The notes under the pieces are model-generated. The model was not told the DNA's origin and searched no databases. It saw nothing but the letters and a program-made list of their open reading frames with translations. From NCBI GenBank assembly GCA_003017855.1, contig PYER01000037.1:1-32952 (forward strand): DNA of 32,952 nucleotides. Direction: 5' to 3'. Position 1 is the first letter of the stretch, and each line of letters starts with the position of its first letter. Origin of the DNA: a filamentous cyanobacterium CCT1. Lineage in GTDB: Bacteria > Cyanobacteriota > Cyanobacteriia > Phormidesmidales > Phormidesmidaceae. This document shows, in pieces, positions 1,883 to 22,003 of this stretch. The position numbers and the translations under genes were made by a program.

Positions 1883-4039
1883 CTAGCTGATTCCCAAAGT
1901 AAGGCTCCAGCCTAGCAGTGTACCGGTGGCACCGGGGGCGCTGTCCACAACGCGCAATCGCCAGGTGCCTTGTGCGGGTTGGCCAATCAGCCGCATCAGG
2001 GCTGGGGTCGTTTGCAGGCTGTAGGTCTGGCGCAGCTCCGTTTGCCGTCCTAGGGTACGGCCCTGAATGAGCACGGTGGTGCCGCTGGGCGCAATCAGGC
2101 TCAGGCTCAGATCGCCCAAAAAAGCGTGGTCCATCTTAACCTCTAGCTGCATATCGCTGACGGTGCCGGTAGCCGCAATCGCTACGCCGCTCTCCACCCC
2201 GCCGGGCTGATTGTCTGGAATGGCCGTCGCCGTCTGGTTTTGCTGCTGCACCACTCGGCCCAGCTGCCGTCCGACAAAGGCTCGTCGCTGGGCCTCTCGC
2301 ACGGCTGCTGCCGCATTCACCTTGCCGTAGCCAAACCACTGGGAGTGGCCGTTAGCGTTGTAGGTGCCGTACTGTAGCCCCAGTTGGGGATCGGAGGTGC
2401 GATCGACAATCTTGTCGGCGGTGGCCTGAAGAATTTCGCGCACCTGCCGGGCGGTCAGGTTGGGGTTGACCGACAGCATCAGCCCCGCCACCCCTGCCAC
2501 CACCGGGCAGGAGCTAGAGGTGCCGCCAAAGACGTTGGTGTAGTCATCGGGGCTGTAGCCCAACCCCTGGGTGCGATCGCTCGTTACCATGCCCAACCCC
2601 GGCAAATACTGGCGCAGCGGCGGCCCTGTGGCCACACTCCCCACCTGGGGTAGGGCCATACTAGGGGGCGCGTTGTTGCTGGGGGCGGCCACGGCAATGT
2701 GTTCGCCCCAGTTGCTGTAGGCGGCCTTGGTGCCCAGGCTGGTTGAGGCCGACACCGCAATCACATCGGGGTGAATGGCAAACCCGCTGAGCCAGCGAGT
2801 AGGGCCGCTGAGGGTGTTTGGGGGCCACTGGGTTTCGTTGATCGTGCCGCTGACTGGACGGTTGGCGTTACCCGCCGAAAAGACAATCACGCAGCCCTTG
2901 CCGTTGCGGCCGGTGGTGGCGGCCCGCGTCACCGCGTTGGTCTGCCGCAGGGTGAGCGGAAAGTAGTTGGTCGCAGGCGACCAGCTGCAGACAATTACCG
3001 CTGCCCCCCGGCGCGCGGCTTCATCAAACAGCTGCTCGATCGAGCGATCGTCAATAAAGCCCGTGGTGCGAATCGGCAAAAAGGCGCAGCCAGGCGCTAC
3101 TCCGACAATGCCAATAGCGTTTTCTTCTCCAATCGCCAGGCCCGCCACCGCAGTACCGTGGTTCTCGTTTTGCTGAGTGGGCAGGGGCAGAGCATCTTTG
3201 TCTTGCAGATCGATAGGAGCTACCAACTTGCCCACGCCCTGCAGGTCGGGGTGATTCAGGTCGAAACCGTCGTCGCTGACGGCAATCACCACCGATCGAG
3301 ACCCGCGCGTAATATCCCAGGCGGCTTCGGCAAAAATATGTGACCCCGCCGCCAGGCTAGCTCCGCCATTGTGGGACAGGTGCCACTGCTGGCGGTAGCG
3401 ATCGTCGGTGGGTCGATAGAGGGGGCCGGTTTCGATCGCCAGGTTAGGTTCTGCCGCCAGCACTCCGTTGAGGGCAATCAAACGGTTGGCCAGTTTGATT
3501 GGGTTTTCGGTCGCGGCTGAAGTCGCCCTGACCACAAATGTATTGGGAATGCCCGCCAAGGGTTTCTCAATCGCCAGGCCCAGACCGCTCAGGGTAGCGT
3601 CGATGGCGGAGGCCGCTGTCTCAGGGGTAAACTGCACCGTGAGCTGCTCGGTCAGGTAAACCCAGGTCTGGGGGCTATCGGCCAACCGGTACACATGGCT
3701 TGCAAACAGCACCGTCGGATCGCGGCGAGCCAGGGCCAGGGCAGGTTCGAGGTCAGATTCGGCCACCTGCCATTCCACCAGTTGACCGCCCGCTACCGCC
3801 CGCAGAGCAATGGGGTTCAGGCGCTGGCGCAGAGGCTCCAGGGCGGAGGAGGCGCTGAGGCGGGTCGTAAACCGAGTCGGGACCTTTTCTAGCCGCAGTT
3901 CTTCGCCGCCGCGCTGCAAAATTTCTCCCCAAAAAGCAGGGCGAGGGCCGCCGCTAGGCATACGAGGATCGGCAGGAGATGCGGTCATGGCATGAAGTTG
4001 GCGGCAGGAACGTTTTGCCAGCGATACAGTCTGGGACAA
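1883..4039 (-). CDS. subtilisin-like serine protease (S8) with C-terminal P-domain; PrcA-like
   Basis: This is a predicted endopeptidase of the subtilase family. The catalytic triad is visible: Asp at about 256 (VSDDGFDLNHPDL), His at about 293 (NENHGTAVAG) and Ser at about 508 (GGTSSSCP), with the oxyanion Asn in FSAGNAN. About 230 residues precede the protease domain and probably act as a propeptide or regulatory region. A proprotein-convertase P-domain of about 110 residues ends the protein (DHAFLGDLSLSLIAPSGT through GTLLGWSLTLG). This layout resembles the calcium-dependent protease PrcA of Anabaena, which has a similar length. No convincing signal peptide is visible, so it may be cytoplasmic or exported by another route. 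The ATG at 4039 gives 718 residues; an in-frame ATG at 3985 is also possible. It is divergent from the TPR-like gene at 4168. Confidence 0.88.
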   Translation of the reverse strand: MSQTVSLAKRSCRQLHAMTASPADPRMPSGGPRPAFWGEILQRGGEELRLEKVPTRFTTRLSASSALEPLRQRLNPIALRAVAGGQLVEWQVAESDLEPALALARRDPTVLFASHVYRLADSPQTWVYLTEQLTVQFTPETAASAIDATLSGLGLAIEKPLAGIPNTFVVRATSAATENPIKLANRLIALNGVLAAEPNLAIETGPLYRPTDDRYRQQWHLSHNGGASLAAGSHIFAEAAWDITRGSRSVVIAVSDDGFDLNHPDLQGVGKLVAPIDLQDKDALPLPTQQNENHGTAVAGLAIGEENAIGIVGVAPGCAFLPIRTTGFIDDRSIEQLFDEAARRGAAVIVCSWSPATNYFPLTLRQTNAVTRAATTGRNGKGCVIVFSAGNANRPVSGTINETQWPPNTLSGPTRWLSGFAIHPDVIAVSASTSLGTKAAYSNWGEHIAVAAPSNNAPPSMALPQVGSVATGPPLRQYLPGLGMVTSDRTQGLGYSPDDYTNVFGGTSSSCPVVAGVAGLMLSVNPNLTARQVREILQATADKIVDRTSDPQLGLQYGTYNANGHSQWFGYGKVNAAAAVREAQRRAFVGRQLGRVVQQQNQTATAIPDNQPGGVESGVAIAATGTVSDMQLEVKMDHAFLGDLSLSLIAPSGTTVLIQGRTLGRQTELRQTYSLQTTPALMRLIGQPAQGTWRLRVVDSAPGATGTLLGWSLTLGIS

Positions 4040-4092
4040 GGCTGTGGAATCGGGGATGCCCCCTGGAGCAGTTGCTCGACTGGCCCCAAAAC

Positions 4093-4110
4093 CGGTATTA
4101 CGCCATACCG
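4093..4110. promoter_or_regulatory. small perfect inverted repeat in divergent intergenic region
   Basis: CGGTAT (4093-4098) pairs perfectly with ATACCG (4105-4110) around a 6-base spacer. It lies in the 128-base region between the divergent subtilase and TPR-like genes. The size and position suit a repressor or activator site, but there is no candidate regulator nearby and a 6-base arm can occur by chance. Confidence 0.25.
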
Positions 4111-4167
4111 AGATGATAAGATACCCCAGTGTTTTTCAGTTTAGTTGTCCCTCACCCCCGCGTATTC

Positions 4168-4749
4168 ATGGTCGCTTCTCCTCACTTTTTGCGTTTCACC
4201 CTGGGCGGTTGGGCCGCCGCTGCGCTATCTGTAGCCCTGGTAGGGGGAATGTCTGGAGCAGCCCTGGCCCAGAGCGACACCGAGCCGGTACGTCCGCTCA
4301 ACCAGGCCAGCAGCTCCCTGAGTATTGCTTCGGGGCAGCAGCTAATGACCGAGGCCAGCGCTGCGATCGCCGAGCAAAACTACGACCTGGCCGAAGAAAA
4401 GCTCAAGCAGGCCAGGGAGAGCTTCAACGAGCTCTCGACCTATTACCAGGAGCTGGCACAGCTGTTTGTTGGAGTTGACACCCAAATCAACCGCAGCAAC
4501 CGCGAGAAAGCGCTCGAAACCGCTCAGCTGCGCGATCAGGCCTCCTATCAACTGGCGCTGGTCTACCGCTCTCAAGACCAGCCCAACGAAGCCGTACCCC
4601 TGCTGATGGAAATTCTGCGCAGTCAGCAGCCGACGCGCGAGCTGGGGCAGCGAGCCTATCAGCAGCTGTTTGAGCTTGGTTTTGTCGATGAGCCCTATGC
4701 TGGGCGGGCGGCTACCACCCCGGCCGAACCCGAGGCACCAGCCGAATAG
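4168..4749 (+). CDS. exported TPR-like protein, function unknown
   Basis: From the ATG at 4168 the product starts with a clear Sec signal peptide: a basic start, a hydrophobic core GGWAAAALSVALVGG, and a likely cleavage after AALA near residue 34. The mature part is alpha-helical and hydrophilic. Two helix-turn-helix units look like tetratricopeptide repeats (around EQNYDLAEEKLKQARESFNE, and RDQASYQLALVYRSQDQPNE with its following helix). A Pro/Glu/Ala tail ends the protein. It is probably periplasmic or thylakoid-lumenal and may act as a protein-interaction scaffold; no partner is evident. The frame is open upstream to 4129, but that start would place 13 extra residues before the signal peptide. 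It is upstream of bolA by 137 bases, so shared transcription is possible but not shown. Confidence 0.75.
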   Translation: MVASPHFLRFTLGGWAAAALSVALVGGMSGAALAQSDTEPVRPLNQASSSLSIASGQQLMTEASAAIAEQNYDLAEEKLKQARESFNELSTYYQELAQLFVGVDTQINRSNREKALETAQLRDQASYQLALVYRSQDQPNEAVPLLMEILRSQQPTRELGQRAYQQLFELGFVDEPYAGRAATTPAEPEAPAE

Positions 4750-4886
4750 CGATCGCATCACCATTTTTCTCAGTCACCATAGCCATATTCAATGCCGCTG
4801 GGGTTATCTAGTAGGCATGTCTCCTGGCAATATGGGGGTAGGGGATTTGTGTGCCCCAGCGACCTGTCCCGCAAGGAAACTCTGTC

Positions 4887-5141
4887 ATGATTACTCCCGA
4901 TCAGGTTAGCGCCATGATTAAAGCTGGGCTCCCCGACGCTAGCGTGCAGGTGCAAGATTTAACCGGTGGTGGCGACCACTATCAGGTCGTAGTGGTGTCG
5001 TCGCAGTTTGAGGGGCGTAGCCTGGTGCAGCAGCATCAGCTGGTATATAAGGCGGTGCGCGAGGCGATGTCCTCTGAAGCTATTCATGCGCTAGCCTTGA
5101 AGACGTATACCCCGGAAGATTGGGCTGCCCAAAGCGCCTAG
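4887..5141 (+). CDS. bolA: BolA-family protein
   Basis: This is a small BolA-family protein of 84 residues. BolA proteins bind a [2Fe-2S] cluster together with monothiol CGFS glutaredoxins and act in iron-sulfur trafficking or iron sensing. The family pattern is visible: a helix [17 protein letters not shown], then [22 protein letters not shown] with the conserved G-DH and F-G positions, then [16 protein letters not shown] with the conserved Q-H--VY. The His in QQH is the usual cluster-ligand candidate. The ATG at 4887 has AAGGAA eight bases upstream, so I prefer it to the longer in-frame start at 4851. The CGFS glutaredoxin gene follows after 56 bases on the same strand, which strongly supports a BolA-Grx partnership. 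Confidence 0.92.
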
Positions 5142-5197
5142 ACCTGAATTTTTCTTTGCTTCAACCCTTTACCCCATTCTGCAAAGGTATCGACGCT

Positions 5198-5521
5198 ATG
5201 GACTCGGCAACTAAAGAAAGACTCGATCAGCTAATTCAGAACAACACCATCATGGTGTTTATGAAGGGCAACAAGCTCATGCCCCAGTGCGGATTCTCTA
5301 ACAACGTGGTGCAAATTCTCAACGTTTTGGGCGTGCCCTTCGAAACGGTTGACGTACTGGCTGATCCAGACATTCGCCAGGGCATTAAAGAGTACTCCAA
5401 CTGGCCCACGATTCCCCAGGTCTATATCAACGGTGAGTTTGTCGGCGGCTCAGACATTCTCATTGAGCTGTACCAAAACGGCAAGCTCCAGGAAATGGTT
5501 GAAATTGCGATGGCCTCCTGA
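5198..5521 (+). CDS. grxD: monothiol glutaredoxin, CGFS type (Grx4/GrxD family)
   Basis: The 107-residue product is a single-domain monothiol glutaredoxin that binds a [2Fe-2S] cluster with glutathione and hands clusters on or pairs with BolA. The active site reads [12 protein letters not shown] at about residues 28-39, preceded by the family MKGNK lysine. The glutathione-binding positions [18 protein letters not shown] are intact. The ATG at 5198 matches the usual start of the family; the frame is open further upstream to 5120, overlapping bolA. It follows bolA in the same direction and is closed by a hairpin at 5578-5616. I see no missing residues. Confidence 0.95.
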
Positions 5522-5577
5522 CGTAGGGCACTGCTGCTACCGTCCGGTCTTGTTGCCGCTGAGAATATCACTTAAAT

Positions 5578-5616
5578 AACGCCGCTAGCCTTCGCAAACC
5601 GGAGGGTAGCGGCGTT
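5578..5616. terminator. bidirectional terminator-like hairpin, grxD/marR
   Basis: AACGCCGCTA (5578-5587) pairs with TAGCGGCGTT (5607-5616), ten perfect pairs around a 19-base loop. A short T-rich tract follows on the plus side (TTTAGTTT), and an A-rich flank precedes on the left, which would read as U-rich for minus-strand transcripts. It lies between the convergent grxD and marR stops. Its right edge touches the marR stop codon (5616-5618), so it probably serves both genes. Confidence 0.65.
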
Positions 5617-6077
5617 TAGTTTGGGTTTTCAAACGGTGATGTTGCCGCCACTTGTTCCATCGCCGCCGCAAAATTTGACAGCACCGCCGCCGCTGCTTTG
5701 AGTTGGTCGTCGTCCTGGTCACTAAACTGACGCATCAGGCTATCGGCGCACTGACGATACAGCGAGGCAATCTCTGCATAGCGGTGCTGCGTAATACCGA
5801 TCTCAATTGAACGGCGATCGGTTTCTGACGGCCTGCGCTCAACAAGACCAGCCTTCTCCAGTCGGTCAATTAGCGCCGTCACCGAGCCGCTGGTTAGACC
5901 GATACTTTCTCCGATGATCCTTGGGGTGAGTGGACCATCTTCGAGGAGATTGAGCGCGCGCAGGTCATTGCGGTGTATGCCAAGGCGTTCAGAAATCCCA
6001 TAGTCGATCGCATCGATCGCTCGATAGATTCTACGGCTGGCCAGAATTAACGCCCCCAGAGTTTCGCGGTCATCCAA
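5616..6077 (-). CDS. MarR-family transcriptional regulator
   Basis: This is a DNA-binding repressor or activator of the MarR family. The winged helix-turn-helix is visible in the middle: NDLRALNLLEDGPLTPRIIG, then ESIGLTSGSVTALIDRLEK as recognition region, then the wing GLVERRPSETDRRSIEI with the conserved D-R dyad. Helices at both ends would form the dimer interface. The frame opens at a TTG at 6098. A perfect AAGGAG sits six bases before a second in-frame TTG at 6077, and I use that start (about 153 residues). It is divergent from the SRPBCC protein gene; the shared 103 bases contain a promoter and a possible operator. The likely targets are itself and that neighbour; no ligand can be guessed. 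Confidence 0.88.
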   Translation of the reverse strand: MDDRETLGALILASRRIYRAIDAIDYGISERLGIHRNDLRALNLLEDGPLTPRIIGESIGLTSGSVTALIDRLEKAGLVERRPSETDRRSIEIGITQHRYAEIASLYRQCADSLMRQFSDQDDDQLKAAAAVLSNFAAAMEQVAATSPFENPN

Positions 6078-6087
6078 AACATTCTCC

Positions 6088-6116
6088 TTGACGATCAAGA
6101 TACTTTGTAGTCTAAT
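6088..6116 (+). promoter_or_regulatory. sigma70-type promoter for the SRPBCC gene
   Basis: TTGACG (6088-6093) and TCTAAT (6111-6116) are separated by exactly 17 bases; each matches the consensus at five of six positions. This would start transcription near 6123, about 58 bases before the ATG at 6181. The -35 box overlaps the 5' end of the divergent marR gene and its Shine-Dalgarno, so the two genes probably interfere at the level of regulation. Confidence 0.6.
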
Positions 6117-6135
6117 TATATCTGAGTCTAGACAA
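6105..6135. promoter_or_regulatory. candidate MarR operator
   Basis: An imperfect dyad, starting TTGTAGTCTA and ending TCTAGACAA, covers the -10 box and start region of the divergent promoter. AGTCTA also occurs twice as a direct repeat within it. MarR proteins usually bind AT-rich imperfect dyads of this size between divergent genes. The symmetry is weak, so this is a position-based guess. Confidence 0.35.
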
Positions 6136-6180
6136 CTCGCACCATAGGGCCGTCGCTGTCAAGCCTGAAAGGAAAAAAAC

Positions 6181-6714
6181 ATGGAACTTGCTTTACTTGG
6201 ACTATTACTGCTCGTGGTCTTGATGCTCGCCTTAGTACTTCTACTGCCAAACGTTGTCCGCTACTCAGAGAAAATTGTCGTCAATGCCCCTATCGCGGAG
6301 GTTTATGACAACATTCGCCTCCAGGAACGGCTCATGTCGTGGTCGGCCTGGCCCGAGGCCACTGGCTCAACCTGCTCCCTTGAAAATGCCGATGGCACCG
6401 TTGGGGCCCGCACCGTTTTCTTTAACCAGGGCAAGCGGTTTGGGCACCAGGAAATAATCGACCTCAAGCCAAATCAAAAAGTCTCGCTGACCCTGGTGAA
6501 CAGCGGGCCGCTGAAGCACACGCCCTACCTCGATTTTGATCTACGCGCCCTTGCCAAAGACCAGACAGAAGTCACGTTGAACTTTGTTAACACCTACCAG
6601 AAGCCTTTTCAGGTGCCCGCCAAGCTGCTCGGTATTGTCAAGTGGACTCGTGCCCTTCAAGTCAAGGATCTGGAAGGGCTAAAGACCTATTCTGAACTGC
6701 AGCGGGCTGTGTGA
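6181..6714 (+). CDS. SRPBCC-superfamily protein with N-terminal membrane helix
   Basis: Residues 1-25 are almost entirely hydrophobic (LLGLLLLVVLMLALVLLLP) and form a membrane anchor. The rest fits the START/SRPBCC lipid- or small-molecule-binding fold. The typical opening is YSEKIVVNAPIAEVYDNI, followed by LMSWSAWP (the 'W' after the first helices). Beta strands follow, then a C-terminal helix KDLEGLKTYSEL, which matches the usual final 'LK' helix of polyketide-cyclase-like members. The ligand is unknown. The ATG at 6181 has AAAGGA about eight bases upstream. It is divergent from marR and so is a likely target of that regulator. Proteins of this kind often act in stress responses or small-molecule binding; here that is inference. 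Confidence 0.78.
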   Translation: MELALLGLLLLVVLMLALVLLLPNVVRYSEKIVVNAPIAEVYDNIRLQERLMSWSAWPEATGSTCSLENADGTVGARTVFFNQGKRFGHQEIIDLKPNQKVSLTLVNSGPLKHTPYLDFDLRALAKDQTEVTLNFVNTYQKPFQVPAKLLGIVKWTRALQVKDLEGLKTYSELQRAV

Positions 6715-6874
6715 TGCAATGGTTTCTTGCTGATCAGGTTCGCGATTGATGGGCTAGGGGGTCACATACGTGGGGTCTGAAAACACCCAGTGCACCCGAT
6801 CGCCGAGAGGCTACAGGTTGACCGTTTGAGGCTATTTGCAGGAGCGAAGGGCAATGCGGCTAGGCCTCGGTTTC

Positions 6875-7903
6875 TCAAGCCGTGTAGAGTGCCCCTAGAC
6901 CGAGCGATCGCAGCCCCCGGCGGTAGGCGATCGAGGTCTTGTCGGCCCCTATGTGAGATTCTGCCGCCATATCCAAAGGCAAGTCTTCAGGGTACTGGGC
7001 TTCTACGACTTCTTTATCTTCCTCAAACACCTGGTAGTTAAACTCGTACACCGGCTCCAGCGGCATATCTTTGTCAAAGTTGCGACAGATGGGTACAAAC
7101 ACCCGAGTCTTGCGGGCTGATACGGGGCTCGCCGCATTGAGAATGCACAGCCGTCCTTCCCCCGGAAAGTGCACCGTCAGCCGGGCCGTAAACGGCAAGA
7201 ATACGTCAAACACCCGCAGCCACTTAAAGTCGGCGGGAGCACGGTCTTGCATAGCCTTTGGGAAGTTGCTCACGGTGCTAAAGTACTCTGCCCGTAGACC
7301 GTGCTCGGTGGGCACCACCTCGTAGCGAGGCACCACCGGATTGTTGATGTCGCCAAAGGTTTCGGTGTGGACCCAGGCAAAGTGGGCTACATCTAAGAAA
7401 CCTTCAATCTGCCGTCCGGCTGCTGCGTCCAGATTGACGGCATCGGGCAAAATTTGCTGATAGTCGGGGTCATCCCAAGCCGGTAGCTCAGGCAGGGGAT
7501 ACTGGTTCCCGCCGCTGAGGTTCGTCCATACCAGGCCGTAGGCTTCTTTGGCTGGGTAGGTTTTGAGGCACAGCTTTTTGGGAATGCTAGCCTCCGGGTT
7601 GGCGGGCACCTTCACGCACTGCCCATCGGCAGAGTAGTGAAAGCCATGGTACTTACAGACCAGATGATCCCCCGCCACCCAACCCATACTGAGGGGCACC
7701 CCTCGATGCAGGCAAATATCATTGGCGACCGATAGGCCACCGCTGGTGCGCCAGATCACCAGCCGCTGATCGAGCAGGGTCGCGGTTACTGGTTTGTTGG
7801 TCACGTCGCGGCTAAAGGCAATGGGATACCAGAACGGGTAAAGCGCATCCCAGTCAGACTCCGTAAACGTGCAACCTCGAGGATAAATTTGCTGATGGGC
7901 CAT
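6875..7903 (-). CDS. Rieske [2Fe-2S] oxygenase, ring-hydroxylating alpha-subunit type
   Basis: This is a non-haem iron oxygenase. The N-terminal Rieske domain has CLH at residues 64-66 and CKYH at 83-86, giving the two Cys and two His cluster ligands. The C-terminal catalytic domain has the 2-His-1-carboxylate region in GRQIEGFLDVAHFAWVH, where the two His are spaced as in vanillate O-demethylase and related enzymes. About 342 residues is typical of that group. The start used is the ATG at 7903; a GTG two codons upstream is possible. No ferredoxin or reductase gene is adjacent, so electrons must come from a partner elsewhere, for example photosynthetic ferredoxin. The substrate cannot be named. 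It stands alone on the minus strand and is divergent from the MFS transporter 280 bases away. Confidence 0.85.
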   Translation of the reverse strand: MAHQQIYPRGCTFTESDWDALYPFWYPIAFSRDVTNKPVTATLLDQRLVIWRTSGGLSVANDICLHRGVPLSMGWVAGDHLVCKYHGFHYSADGQCVKVPANPEASIPKKLCLKTYPAKEAYGLVWTNLSGGNQYPLPELPAWDDPDYQQILPDAVNLDAAAGRQIEGFLDVAHFAWVHTETFGDINNPVVPRYEVVPTEHGLRAEYFSTVSNFPKAMQDRAPADFKWLRVFDVFLPFTARLTVHFPGEGRLCILNAASPVSARKTRVFVPICRNFDKDMPLEPVYEFNYQVFEEDKEVVEAQYPEDLPLDMAAESHIGADKTSIAYRRGLRSLGLGALYTA

Positions 7904-19977: not shown

Positions 19978-20200
19978 GGGTGGATGGGTAGCGGTCCCTG
20001 AGCGGAGTCGAAGGGAGTGCATGGGTGGATGGGTAGAGAGAAATGCAAAGTGCAAAATGCAAAATGGGGACCCTGATGCATCCACGGATCTCTCTGATCC
20101 GCCCAACCGCGCCCACTAAATTTTGAACTTTGAACTTTTCCCTTTCTCACGCATTAACCAATACCTCAATTTTGAATTTTCAATTTTGAACTTTGAATTC
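19978..20200. repeat. low-complexity direct-repeat patch downstream of copA
   Basis: The 251-base gap between copA and the cupredoxin gene holds several short repeats. TGGATGGGTAG occurs at 19981 and 20026. A CCCTGAGCGGAGTCGAAGGG imperfect palindrome lies at about 19996-20015. GCAAA(A/G)TG units repeat at about 20044-20066. TTTTGAACTTTGAA occurs at 20121-20134 and again at 20184-20197, with further TTTTGAA units between. These are typical intergenic repeats; no gene is supported here. Confidence 0.65.
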
Positions 20201-20228
20201 TTTGCCCCGATCCGCCAAATGCACCGCT

Positions 20229-20798
20229 ATGACACTCAAACCCCTCACCCTCACCACCTTCACGAGTCTGGGATTGGCCCTCAGCTTAGCTACCGGCACC
20301 CCGGCTCAGATGGAGATGGACAACGGCACTATGGGCGCGCCCCAGTCTACAGGCCAGTTTCAGCGTATCGAGCAACCGCTGTGGTCTAAGGTGGCGGTCA
20401 CTGGAGCGGGGCTGGGCCTAATTGGGCTGGAGATGTGGTGGTTTTTGCTCAGCAAGCCCAGGTCTCGCCAGGCCAGTGCCACAGATGGAGTGCAGGAAAT
20501 TACCGTCACCGTTGATGGCGGCTACGACCCCAGCGAGATTGTTGTGCAGGCGGGGCAGCCGGTGCGGCTCAACTTCTACCGCAAAGACCCCAGCAGCTGC
20601 TTGGAGGCGGTGCGGTTTCCTGACTTTCGCATTGCCAGAGAATTACCCGTCAACCAGACGACAGCGATCGAATTTACGCCCACCCAACCGGGGCGCTACG
20701 AGTTTACCTGCGGTATGAATATGTTTCGCGGCACGGTGGACGCGCGCTTTGGGGCAGAATCCCATGACAAGAATACAGAGGGCCATACCTTGGTCTAA
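20229..20798 (+). CDS. membrane-anchored cupredoxin-fold protein, copper-module associated
   Basis: A 189-residue protein: an N-terminal signal-like helix (about 5-26), a Met-rich stretch MEMDNGTMG, a membrane helix at about 55-75, then a cupredoxin-like beta domain. The domain opens with EITVTVDGGYDPSEIVVQAG and has Cys124 (DPSSCLEAVRFPD) and Cys161-Gly-Met163-Asn-Met165 (YEFTCGMNMFRG). These are the usual landmarks of cupredoxin domains seen beside Cu+ ATPases. I see no His inside the domain, so this is not a classical blue-copper site; Cys/Met ligands for Cu(I) are more likely. The start used is the ATG at 20229, which directly precedes the signal segment. It lies downstream of copA on the same strand, which suggests it receives or buffers exported copper. 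Confidence 0.82.
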   Translation: MTLKPLTLTTFTSLGLALSLATGTPAQMEMDNGTMGAPQSTGQFQRIEQPLWSKVAVTGAGLGLIGLEMWWFLLSKPRSRQASATDGVQEITVTVDGGYDPSEIVVQAGQPVRLNFYRKDPSSCLEAVRFPDFRIARELPVNQTTAIEFTPTQPGRYEFTCGMNMFRGTVDARFGAESHDKNTEGHTLV

Positions 20799-20920
20799 TG
20801 TGAATAGTGCTAACGCAGATCTGGCTCTTGCCAACTCATAAATGTGATCTGCAATACAGCCTTTTGGAACTATTAACTAGGTATGCTAACTTACCAACGT
20901 AAGAATATGGCAATACCATT

Positions 20921-22003
20921 ATGGACATTTTGATGAAGTGGCTGGAAAACGATCAAACTGTCACCAATACGGTTGTCATTGCCCTAAGTTTTATTGTTCT
21001 TTTAGTTGTATTTCTCTGTTTTGCAGCCTTTTTTCAGGGTCGCAGCATTGAGTTTTGGCCTCCAAAAATTGGCGAACGACCAGCGAGATCTTCTACATCG
21101 AACCCTGTCGATCGCTTTACGGTTATAGCTTGTTTTTTTATTTCTACGCTGCTACTTTCTCTCTTGCTAGCAGCCCGATCGGGTCCTTCACGAGAAACAA
21201 ATTCCCTGGCCACTTTATCAGGCTCTCGCCCCTATGCAATAGGTCAAGTATCCATCGAATCTAACGCAGGATTTCAAAATTCTGGCATCTACCTCAAAAC
21301 GGGTGAAAAAGTTGTTTTAGACCCAGATGGACGAATCAACTTGGCCATGTTACAAAATAGCACCTACATCAGCTTGGCAAAGGCAATTATTGCTTACAAT
21401 CTTCCTCAAACAGATGCTTATCGAGATTATAAGCAGACCTACCTGCCGAACTCACAACCAGATCAAACGCCTTTTCAGGGTAGTTTGAATAACGTTAATG
21501 ATCTTCAAACTCTTACAGGTGGGGAAGTCTTTCGAAGAGATTGGATTGGAGTTGGAGGCGAGAAAATTGATAGCCGCGACCTAAATGCTTGTTTGTTATT
21601 TCAAGGTAATGCTGGCCAGGTAGGCGATTGGGGAATGTTGCTGGCACAGGTGATGGCTAATCCTGGTTCTGCTGTTACTGACCCTTTTGAAGTACTGCAA
21701 GAAAATGACTTGACCCCTTCAGATTTGGTTCCTGTTTCTACCCAAGATTATGTGTTTGAGGCCACACAGGACGGTTGGCTAACTTTTATTGTTAATGACG
21801 CTGTCTTGTCCAGCGACGGTAGCCCAGAGAGAATCTCTTGTGTAGAATATCGACAGGCTTTGAGAAAAGCTTCAGATAATTTTAAATTTCAGGGTGATAG
21901 CTTTCGTATTCCAGAACGATCTATTCCTCTAACTTGGTATTCGGATAATCTTGGTGCTTTCCACGTTGTTGTGAAACCGTTTAATCAGCGATCGCCAGCG
22001 TAG
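20921..22003 (+). CDS. two-helix membrane protein with LecA/PA-I-like lectin domain (function unknown)
   Basis: Residues 16-38 and 66-85 are membrane helices. The loop between them is basic (GRSIEFWPPKIGERPARSS), so it should be cytoplasmic, with the large C-terminal part outside. From about residue 108 the protein resembles the PA-I galactophilic lectin (LecA) family: an opening strand pattern VSIESNAGFQNSGIYLKTGE, a GMLLAQVMANPG strand like the LecA 'ALVMKIG' strand, and a final pair GWLTFIVNDA ... WYSDNLGAFHVVV matching the calcium- and sugar-binding 'YND...NNSGSFSV' end. The domain is larger than LecA, with inserts. The likeness was judged by eye. The gene is visibly AT-richer than its neighbours. 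It overlaps the convergent exonuclease gene by 19 bases. The ATG at 20921 lacks a clear Shine-Dalgarno; an ATG at 20933 is possible. Confidence 0.72.
   Translation: MDILMKWLENDQTVTNTVVIALSFIVLLVVFLCFAAFFQGRSIEFWPPKIGERPARSSTSNPVDRFTVIACFFISTLLLSLLLAARSGPSRETNSLATLSGSRPYAIGQVSIESNAGFQNSGIYLKTGEKVVLDPDGRINLAMLQNSTYISLAKAIIAYNLPQTDAYRDYKQTYLPNSQPDQTPFQGSLNNVNDLQTLTGGEVFRRDWIGVGGEKIDSRDLNACLLFQGNAGQVGDWGMLLAQVMANPGSAVTDPFEVLQENDLTPSDLVPVSTQDYVFEATQDGWLTFIVNDAVLSSDGSPERISCVEYRQALRKASDNFKFQGDSFRIPERSIPLTWYSDNLGAFHVVVKPFNQRSPA

What the first reader, a model, noticed from the sequence alone, without database searches (positions are those of the whole stretch)
20921..22003. AT-rich gene for a two-helix membrane protein carrying a LecA-like lectin domain
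Seen: two N-terminal helices, a basic loop with FWPPKIG, then a domain with the strand pattern of the PA-I/LecA galactose lectin, including a final FIVNDA ... DNLGAFHVVV pair. The gene is AT-richer than its surroundings and overlaps the next gene. LecA proteins are normally small, soluble and secreted; a membrane-tethered, larger version would be unusual and could be a cell-surface or phage/host recognition protein. I also have a vague memory of FWPPKIG-like loops after the first helix in other predicted membrane-bound proteins.
Basis: partly seen in the sequence, partly recalled or inferred. Interest (0 to 1): 0.65.

Follow-up and report, generated by a model that had tools for sequence, protein, structure and literature searches.

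The report
Mobile membrane anchor carrying lectin-like domain
A foreign-looking gene in a cyanobacterial genome makes a membrane protein whose outer part resembles a sugar-binding lectin and whose front end is an unnamed membrane module that occurs in other bacteria joined to quite different proteins, a layout known from bacterial sensing and self-defence systems.

Summary
The gene at 20921-22003 is as described: 360 aa, two predicted membrane helices, FWPPKIG loop, 43% GC against 57-63% for 14 other window ORFs, 19-bp overlap with the next gene. Two same-genus genomes have the flanking genes side by side without it; with its composition this favours acquisition. Residues 103-352 carry PA-IL/LecA blocks in order: 60 bits against at most 27 in 1500 shuffles and 23 in 464 non-PA-IL controls. 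No curated model matches, hhalign is weak and no independent fold confirms it: a LecA-like domain is probable, not proven. The larger finding is the first ~57 residues, one helix plus QGRxIxFWPPxIG: the same module starts ten other proteins from several phyla, fused to kinase, methyltransferase, DctP, DUF1045-like or unnamed domains. Kinase and methyltransferase versions with one helix must face the cytoplasm, so this lectin-like domain, behind a second helix, should face outwards. I read it as a horizontally spread anchor displaying exchangeable sensor or effector domains, here a glycan sensor. Function is inferred.

The parts
20921..22003 (+). Gene for the 360-aa two-helix protein with a LecA-like C-terminal domain
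   Evidence: ORF, composition, N-terminal relatives
20921..21091 (+). N-terminal FWPP module, residues 1-57: short N-terminus, transmembrane helix 1, QGRxIxFWPPxIG loop
   Evidence: Alignments A1 and A5; profile match E 4.2e-27 is by construction, the window being a row of the profile; plain protein match to the G006 kinase protein E 1.9e-12
20972..21028 (+). Transmembrane helix 1, residues 18-36
   Evidence: Hydropathy 3.19
21038..21073 (+). Juxtamembrane motif GRSIEFWPPKIG, residues 40-51
   Evidence: Sequence; a looser FWPPxIG DNA pattern occurs once in this genome; the GRxIxFWPPxIG pattern in 10 stretches of the species-genome collection
21116..21172 (+). Transmembrane helix 2, residues 66-84
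   Evidence: Hydropathy 2.5
21227..21976 (+). LecA/PA-IL-like domain, residues 103-352, with long inserts
   Evidence: Five-block test; HMMER three collinear weak segments
21767..21799 (+). PA-IL block 4, QDGWLTFIVND
21938..21973 (+). PA-IL block 5, YSDNLGAFHVVV; DN stands where PA-IL lectins have GDN/GNN
20748..22003 (.). Stretch absent from the same place in two same-genus genomes; borders approximate
   Evidence: blastn of L033 and L035 against the window
20193..20798 (+). Left flank: cupredoxin-domain gene; alignment to both relatives stops before its last codons
   Evidence: Pfam PF13473
21985..22587 (-). Right flank: DnaQ-like 3'-5' exonuclease gene, convergent, 19-bp overlap
   Evidence: Pfam PF00929

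Best explanation
The gene is a horizontally acquired member of an unnamed modular family. Its first ~57 residues are a mobile membrane module: a short N-terminus outside, one helix, and a conserved cytoplasmic QGRxIxFWPPxIG loop. The rest is exchangeable. Where the fused domain needs ATP or SAM it follows directly and sits in the cytoplasm; where it is a binding domain (DctP in L016, LecA-like here) a second helix carries it outside. Here a LecA-like beta-sandwich, with the Asp/Asn positions of PA-IL lectins kept, would bind a sugar-bearing ligand at the outer face of the plasma membrane, and binding or clustering would be passed to the cytoplasmic FWPP loop, which engages a common partner or assembles. 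The likely setting is conflict/defence or envelope surveillance. Shown: the gene, hydrophobic helices, module sharing, patchy distribution, empty site in two relatives, block similarity. Inferred: acquisition, orientation, sugar binding, signalling through the loop, defence role.
For: Plain protein search finds the module in a same-genus kinase protein, 47% identity, E 1.9e-12 (kinase). Of 10 exact-motif stretches in the species-genome collection, 9 encode an N-terminal helix-FWPP module; a further member with FYPP was found by profile, E 8.4e-14. Fused domains: kinase in L014 and L015, methyltransferase L017, DctP L016, DUF1045 L010 (TIGR03223 there is below its cut-off), no named domain in L009, L011, L012, L013 and L030. 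K+R are more numerous in the 28 residues after helix 1 than in the shorter stretch before it in 11 of 11, net charge after it is positive in 10 of 11; a second helix is called only in the window protein and the DctP protein. Gene GC is below the rest of its locus in 11 of 11, by 5 points or more in 8. Empty site in 2 relatives. PA-IL blocks. Conflict-type neighbours in some loci: EAD4 (L010), NACHT and Roc-COR (L013), a RelA/SpoT gene overlapping the module gene (L009); in the Calditrichia contig phage-type RecT, SbcC-like and replication-O-like genes stand nearby.
Against: No full-length homologue was found, so neither this fusion nor its orientation is seen conserved. The five window neighbours scanned are ordinary chromosomal genes or unnamed. 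No PADLOC match for the window protein; the PADLOC matches of L014, L015 and L017 are what any kinase or methyltransferase domain may give. I saw no neighbour common to the module loci in the ORF lists, but most neighbours were not scanned. The L010, L016 and L017 genes are only 1-3 GC points below their loci. The K+R comparison sets 28 residues against fewer and is biased. The LecA similarity fails curated cut-offs, and an MAFFT identity count is no better than shuffles.
Confidence: 0.45

Rival explanations
1. It is only a tethered surface lectin: the module is a plain membrane anchor without a partner, and the lectin-like domain binds the cell's own or a neighbour's polysaccharide, for aggregation or envelope contact, with no signalling.
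For: LecA-like domain after helix 2; single AT-rich gene, no other gene in the extra 1.2 kb.
Against: A plain anchor needs no particular loop, yet the loop is kept next to unrelated domains, including kinases and a methyltransferase; most of its conserved columns were, however, fixed by the search pattern.
Confidence: 0.2
2. A phage- or prophage-derived superinfection-exclusion or defence protein: the module brings variable domains to the membrane and blocks or senses phage entry, here by binding a glycan or glycoprotein.
For: The Calditrichia member stands near phage-type RecT and replication genes; patchy, low-GC, one copy per genome in 9 of 9.
Against: No match in the phage collection at E 0.01 or among plasmids (and at E 10); no true hit in IMG/VR; no phage gene among the five window neighbours scanned.
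Confidence: 0.2
3. The C-terminal domain is not LecA-related: another beta-rich domain with a chance likeness.
For: No Pfam hit at E 10; hhalign about 5%; MAFFT identity count within the range of shuffles and controls; single-sequence model unusable.
Against: Five ordered blocks: the best of 1500 shuffles has 27.3 and the best of 464 non-PA-IL control segments 22.8, target 60.0 (best of a further 600 shuffles 34.1); without the last block z 5.5, without block 4 z 7.6.
Confidence: 0.15

Closest known systems
PA-IL / LecA galactose-lectin family (Pfam PF07828; LecA 1l7l, PllA 5odu, EclA N-terminal domain 6ygq)
   Same: Ordered blocks: LKxG(D/E), W and G of WxxPxG, LLxxI/V, DGxLxxxxND and [FY]xDNxGxFxVxV
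   Different: The PDB lectin chains seen here have 121-146 residues; this domain stands behind two helices, has inserts of tens of residues between blocks and is below all curated cut-offs
EACC1 two-gene membrane conflict system (PMC7159879; passages and section 33 read)
   Same: Conserved single-helix constant component with many alternative partner domains, including helices followed by an extracellular periplasmic-binding-protein domain
   Different: There the constant component is a separate 5' gene and the variable domains follow a caspase or cyclase in a second gene; here the module is fused directly to the variable domain
Lectin-fold sensors of bacterial conflict systems, NPCBM and FGS (PMC8195603; passages and section 7 read)
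   Same: A lectin-fold domain sharing an adaptor with enzymes such as kinases or TIR domains
   Different: Those are called intracellular sensors in that paper and use death-like or EAD adaptors; here the domain is PA-IL-like, predicted outside the membrane, with a helix-FWPP module

Membership tests
PA-IL / LecA (PF07828) | Match over the family's curated HMM cut-off | tested here: not met
   No Pfam family at E 1 for the whole protein or at E 10 for the domain; own genome without PF07828 match at E 0.01
PA-IL / LecA (PF07828) | Family-conserved sequence blocks in order | tested here: met
   60.0 bits; 0 of 1500 shuffles reach it (best 27.3); 464 non-PA-IL control segments at most 22.8; 4 PA-IL segments 129-145; six runs. 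True order is best of 120, but by only 1 bit
PA-IL / LecA (PF07828) | PA-IL beta-sandwich fold | tested here: inconclusive
   Best VIA-align rows EclA Z 8.1, PllA 7.9, LecA 7.4, but the model (mean pLDDT 41.8) was made with PA-IL rows and such Z can mean a common arrangement; Foldseek best E 0.65, PllA rank 16
PA-IL / LecA (PF07828) | Calcium-dependent galactose binding | not testable with these tools
   ND and DN positions are present; that such positions bind calcium is recalled, not from a call
PA-IL / LecA (PF07828) | Small soluble lectin | tested here: not met
   360 aa with two predicted helices
EACC1 membrane conflict system | EACC1 domain | tested here: inconclusive
   No such match in the Pfam scans of the window protein, nine other module proteins and L030; that Pfam holds an EACC1 model is recalled
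EACC1 membrane conflict system | Adjacent gene with caspase or cyclase | tested here: inconclusive
   None among the window neighbours scanned or the neighbours of other members scanned; many neighbours were not scanned
FWPP-module family (defined here) | N-terminal helix followed by QGRx[IV]xF[WY]PPxIG | tested here: met
   A5: 9 columns invariant in 10 rows (the L010 row of A1 was left out there). Motif columns of the pattern-found rows are fixed by the search; A36, F37 and Q39 are not, and are invariant in the 10 rows of A1

The most novel reading that the evidence does not exclude
The helix-FWPP module is an undescribed constant component of a membrane-based bacterial conflict network: it serves both sides of the membrane, holding cytosolic effectors (kinase, methyltransferase) or, with an extra helix, extracytoplasmic sensors (LecA-like, DctP), all reporting through one conserved cytoplasmic loop.
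Probability: 0.3. Interest if true: 0.75.

Novelty: new variant of a known kind. Interest (0 to 1): 0.55.

Why it matters
It ties a lectin-like receptor, kinases, a methyltransferase and a solute-binding protein to one small membrane module that none of the family libraries scanned here names. If the FWPP loop is a shared docking or assembly element, one partner would explain a scattered set of orphan genes in several bacterial phyla, and the lectin version would be an unusual outward-facing sensor of such a system.

Tried and rejected
Homologues of the whole protein; 2 of 143 genomes, the window's own and the N-terminal match in G006; a second, weak place in the own genome (E 0.19, L002); 2 of 386, the own one and E 0.0097 in G407, inside a 515-aa ORF that looks like an efflux outer-membrane protein by eye (L004); 24 stretches matched a peptide pattern, none confirmed. 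Plasmids and phages none at E 0.01; the C-terminal part in plasmids at E 10 gave two Streptomyces places at E 4 and 6; IMG/VR none confirmed.

A phospholipase-D-like reading of the unnamed domains in L009 and L011-L013 was my impression only; the profile against PDB gave best E 0.065 to ribose-1,5-bisphosphate isomerase and nothing of that kind, so I call them unnamed.

LecA tests that came out weak: hhalign, just above the best shuffle; MAFFT identity count, target 12 of 26 invariant columns against shuffles mean 9.1 and top 17 (300) and 135 control ORFs top 14, any-identity count 52 against shuffles top 55 and controls top 56, which warns against over-reading alignment A4. Foldseek with the single-sequence model: no significant match. 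PF07828 in relatives: 2 of 115 genomes, one over cut-off (L006); the other, L007, has stops inside.

L018 (Frankia) matches the motif, but the 134-aa frame has no helix before it: chance. L031 (IMG/VR) likewise. At the insertion only short repeats, no border repeat noticed, one promoter-like site against 2.0 expected and no terminator against 1.2. Module against PDB: best E 0.018 (a light-harvesting subunit), then PsaJ chains at 0.27-1.3, none over the FWPP part. Paper searches for FWPPKIG, FWPP motif, FWPP with transmembrane, LecA/PA-IL terms and conflict-system terms listed no paper that, by title, abstract start or the passages I opened in three of them, describes the module; the library lacks most subscription papers.

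Full report
The gene. The window is G000:C373:1-32952 of a 6.85-Mb, 546-contig genome. ORF 20921-22003 (+) encodes 360 aa. Its GC is 43.2% (GC3 35.2%); 14 other window ORFs measured have 57-63%. It runs towards, and overlaps by 19 bp, a DnaQ-like exonuclease gene on the other strand; upstream are a cupredoxin-domain gene and a copper P-type ATPase. The same-genus genome G006 and the genome of L014, titled Leptolyngbyaceae cyanobacterium M65_K2018_010, give the same match at the same coordinates, so the window probably comes from a Leptolyngbyaceae-type cyanobacterium (inference).

Insertion. Of 26 genomes of the genus, the own one included, 15 have the cupredoxin protein. Among the 22 loci returned, exonuclease sequence lies beside it in three: the window's own, L033 (G022) and L035 (G016). 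In those two, cupredoxin, exonuclease and antiporter follow in the window's order without the target gene: L033 aligns to the window up to 20747 and again from 22018, L035 up to 20740 and from 22004, a net difference of 1.15-1.18 kb. With composition and the lack of relatives this favours acquisition; loss in both is not excluded. In the other 19 loci no exonuclease match lies in the stretch held, some of which is cut short, so they do not bear on the site.

The N-terminal module. Protein search gave one relative in 143 genomes besides the window itself: residues 4-61, 47% identical, at the start of a 393-aa protein of G006 with a kinase domain. A DNA pattern for GRxIxFWPPxIG over the species-genome collection (84,980 species by the tool's description) gave 10 stretches; about one chance hit is my own rough estimate. 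In nine the motif lies in frame after a hydrophobic helix near the protein's start (the start of L015 is an internal ATG of my choice); the tenth, Frankia L018, does not. The nine bear kinase (L014, which is the G006 gene, and L015), methyltransferase (L017), DctP (L016, partial), DUF1045 (L010) or no named domain (L009, L011, L012, L013); L009 and L012 are 51% identical. A profile found one more, with FYPPEIG and another unnamed domain (L030). Profile searches, the centre genome counted each time: 2 of 143 relatives; 1 of 319 of the class, with only 20 candidates scored per genome in the rows printed; 2 of 231 and 1 of 231 in the groups around L009 and L017. Each of nine module genomes has one copy. 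The module is rare and patchy. In A5, from which the L010 row was left out, nine columns are invariant; most were fixed by the search pattern, but A36, F37 and Q39 were not and are invariant in A1, which holds L010. L030 shows that W46 and I43 can vary.

Topology. In 11 of 11 module proteins K+R are more numerous in the 28 residues after helix 1 than before it, and net charge there is positive in 10 of 11 (L014 is -2). The comparison is biased, the stretch before the helix being shorter, and in L012 and L015 the called helix lies early. Kinase and methyltransferase domains need cytoplasmic substrates, so the loop should be cytoplasmic. A second helix is called only in the window protein and the DctP protein; DctP proteins are extracytoplasmic by family knowledge. 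This places the window's C-terminal domain outside, by inference.

The C-terminal domain. Four HMM libraries give no useful match. hhalign against four PA-IL sequences scores 22.15, above 200 of 200 shuffles (best 20.6), but at 5% probability; with eight rows 23.08 against a maximum of 22.01 in 150 shuffles. HMMER with filters off finds three weak segments in the family's order, 8.4 bits in all. A three-block test gave 28.0 bits; best of 1000 shuffles 19.0, best of 172 control segments without L006 7.9, L006 itself 49.3. A five-block test from PA-IL conserved columns gives 60.0; 1500 shuffles have mean 4.5, sd 5.6, maximum 27.3; of 468 control segments four are PA-IL (129-145) and the other 464 reach at most 22.8. 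I chose gap limits and the two small blocks after seeing the target. With one gap limit of 150, four runs with fewer blocks and one without the L006 row, z is 5.4-9.0 and 0 of 600 shuffles reach the target in each of the six runs, the best shuffle being 34.1 against 60.0. Most of the score comes from the last two blocks (16.5 and 24.6). Against it, an identity count on MAFFT alignments lies within the range of shuffles and controls. The single-sequence model is useless beyond the helices. A model with four PA-IL rows has pTM 0.43 and mean pLDDT 41.8; VIA-align ranks EclA Z 8.1, PllA 7.9, an uncharacterised Bacillus protein 7.8 and LecA 7.4 near the top, while Foldseek finds nothing significant. 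PA-IL rows were in the alignment, so this is not independent. I put a true PA-IL relationship at about 0.8.

Neighbourhoods. L009's module gene overlaps an HD-RelA/SpoT gene; L010 has an EAD4 protein nearby; L013 has NACHT and LRR-Roc-COR genes; L011 is followed after 9 bp by an Fpg-like glycosylase gene. In a fuller stretch of the Calditrichia contig the module gene lies beside a small gene that I take for a repressor by eye only (no Pfam or PHROG match), with RecT, SbcC-like and replication-O-like genes beyond. In the ORF lists of L014, L016, L017, L070 and L071 I noticed no such context, but those neighbours were mostly not scanned. So a conflict setting is suggested by some loci, not by the window's own neighbours.

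Literature. PMC7159879 (passages and section 33 read) describes EACC1, a single-helix constant component encoded beside caspase genes with up to 50 alternative domains, including helices with an extracellular binding-protein domain. PMC8195603 (passages and section 7 read) proposes NPCBM and FGS lectin folds as invader sensors. PMC10907252 (passages only) has neither FWPP nor LecA in its text. A constant membrane part with interchangeable domains, and lectin sensors, are thus known kinds; I found no description of the FWPP module or of a PA-IL-like sensor on it in the searches listed.

Verdict. An accessory, probably horizontally acquired gene; module sharing well supported; LecA-like domain probable; function inferred.

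Noticed in passing
L068:745-2180 and 3389-7411 (Calditrichia contig G629:C79): Module gene beside a possible repressor gene (by eye), with RecT, SbcC-like and replication-O-like genes on the other strand: looks like the immunity region of a prophage with a cargo gene.
   Followed up: partly
L009:1974-4108: Module gene overlaps by 19 bases (first start codon taken) an HD-RelA/SpoT gene; both 35% GC while the other ORFs of the locus have 46-53%: possible two-gene cassette.
   Followed up: partly
L011:4369-5892: Module gene followed after 9 bp by an Fpg-like DNA glycosylase gene of the same low GC: another possible two-gene cassette.
   Followed up: partly
L034, L040, L047, L048: In these loci the window's cupredoxin matches twice in tandem beside the copper ATPase, unlike in the window.
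   Followed up: no
window 20748-20798: Alignment to both relatives with the empty site stops before the last codons of the cupredoxin gene, so the change at the site may also have replaced that gene's 3' end.
   Followed up: partly
window 20921-21030: The module's first ~30 positions weakly resemble photosystem I PsaJ N-termini (E 0.27-1.3); not significant.
   Followed up: no
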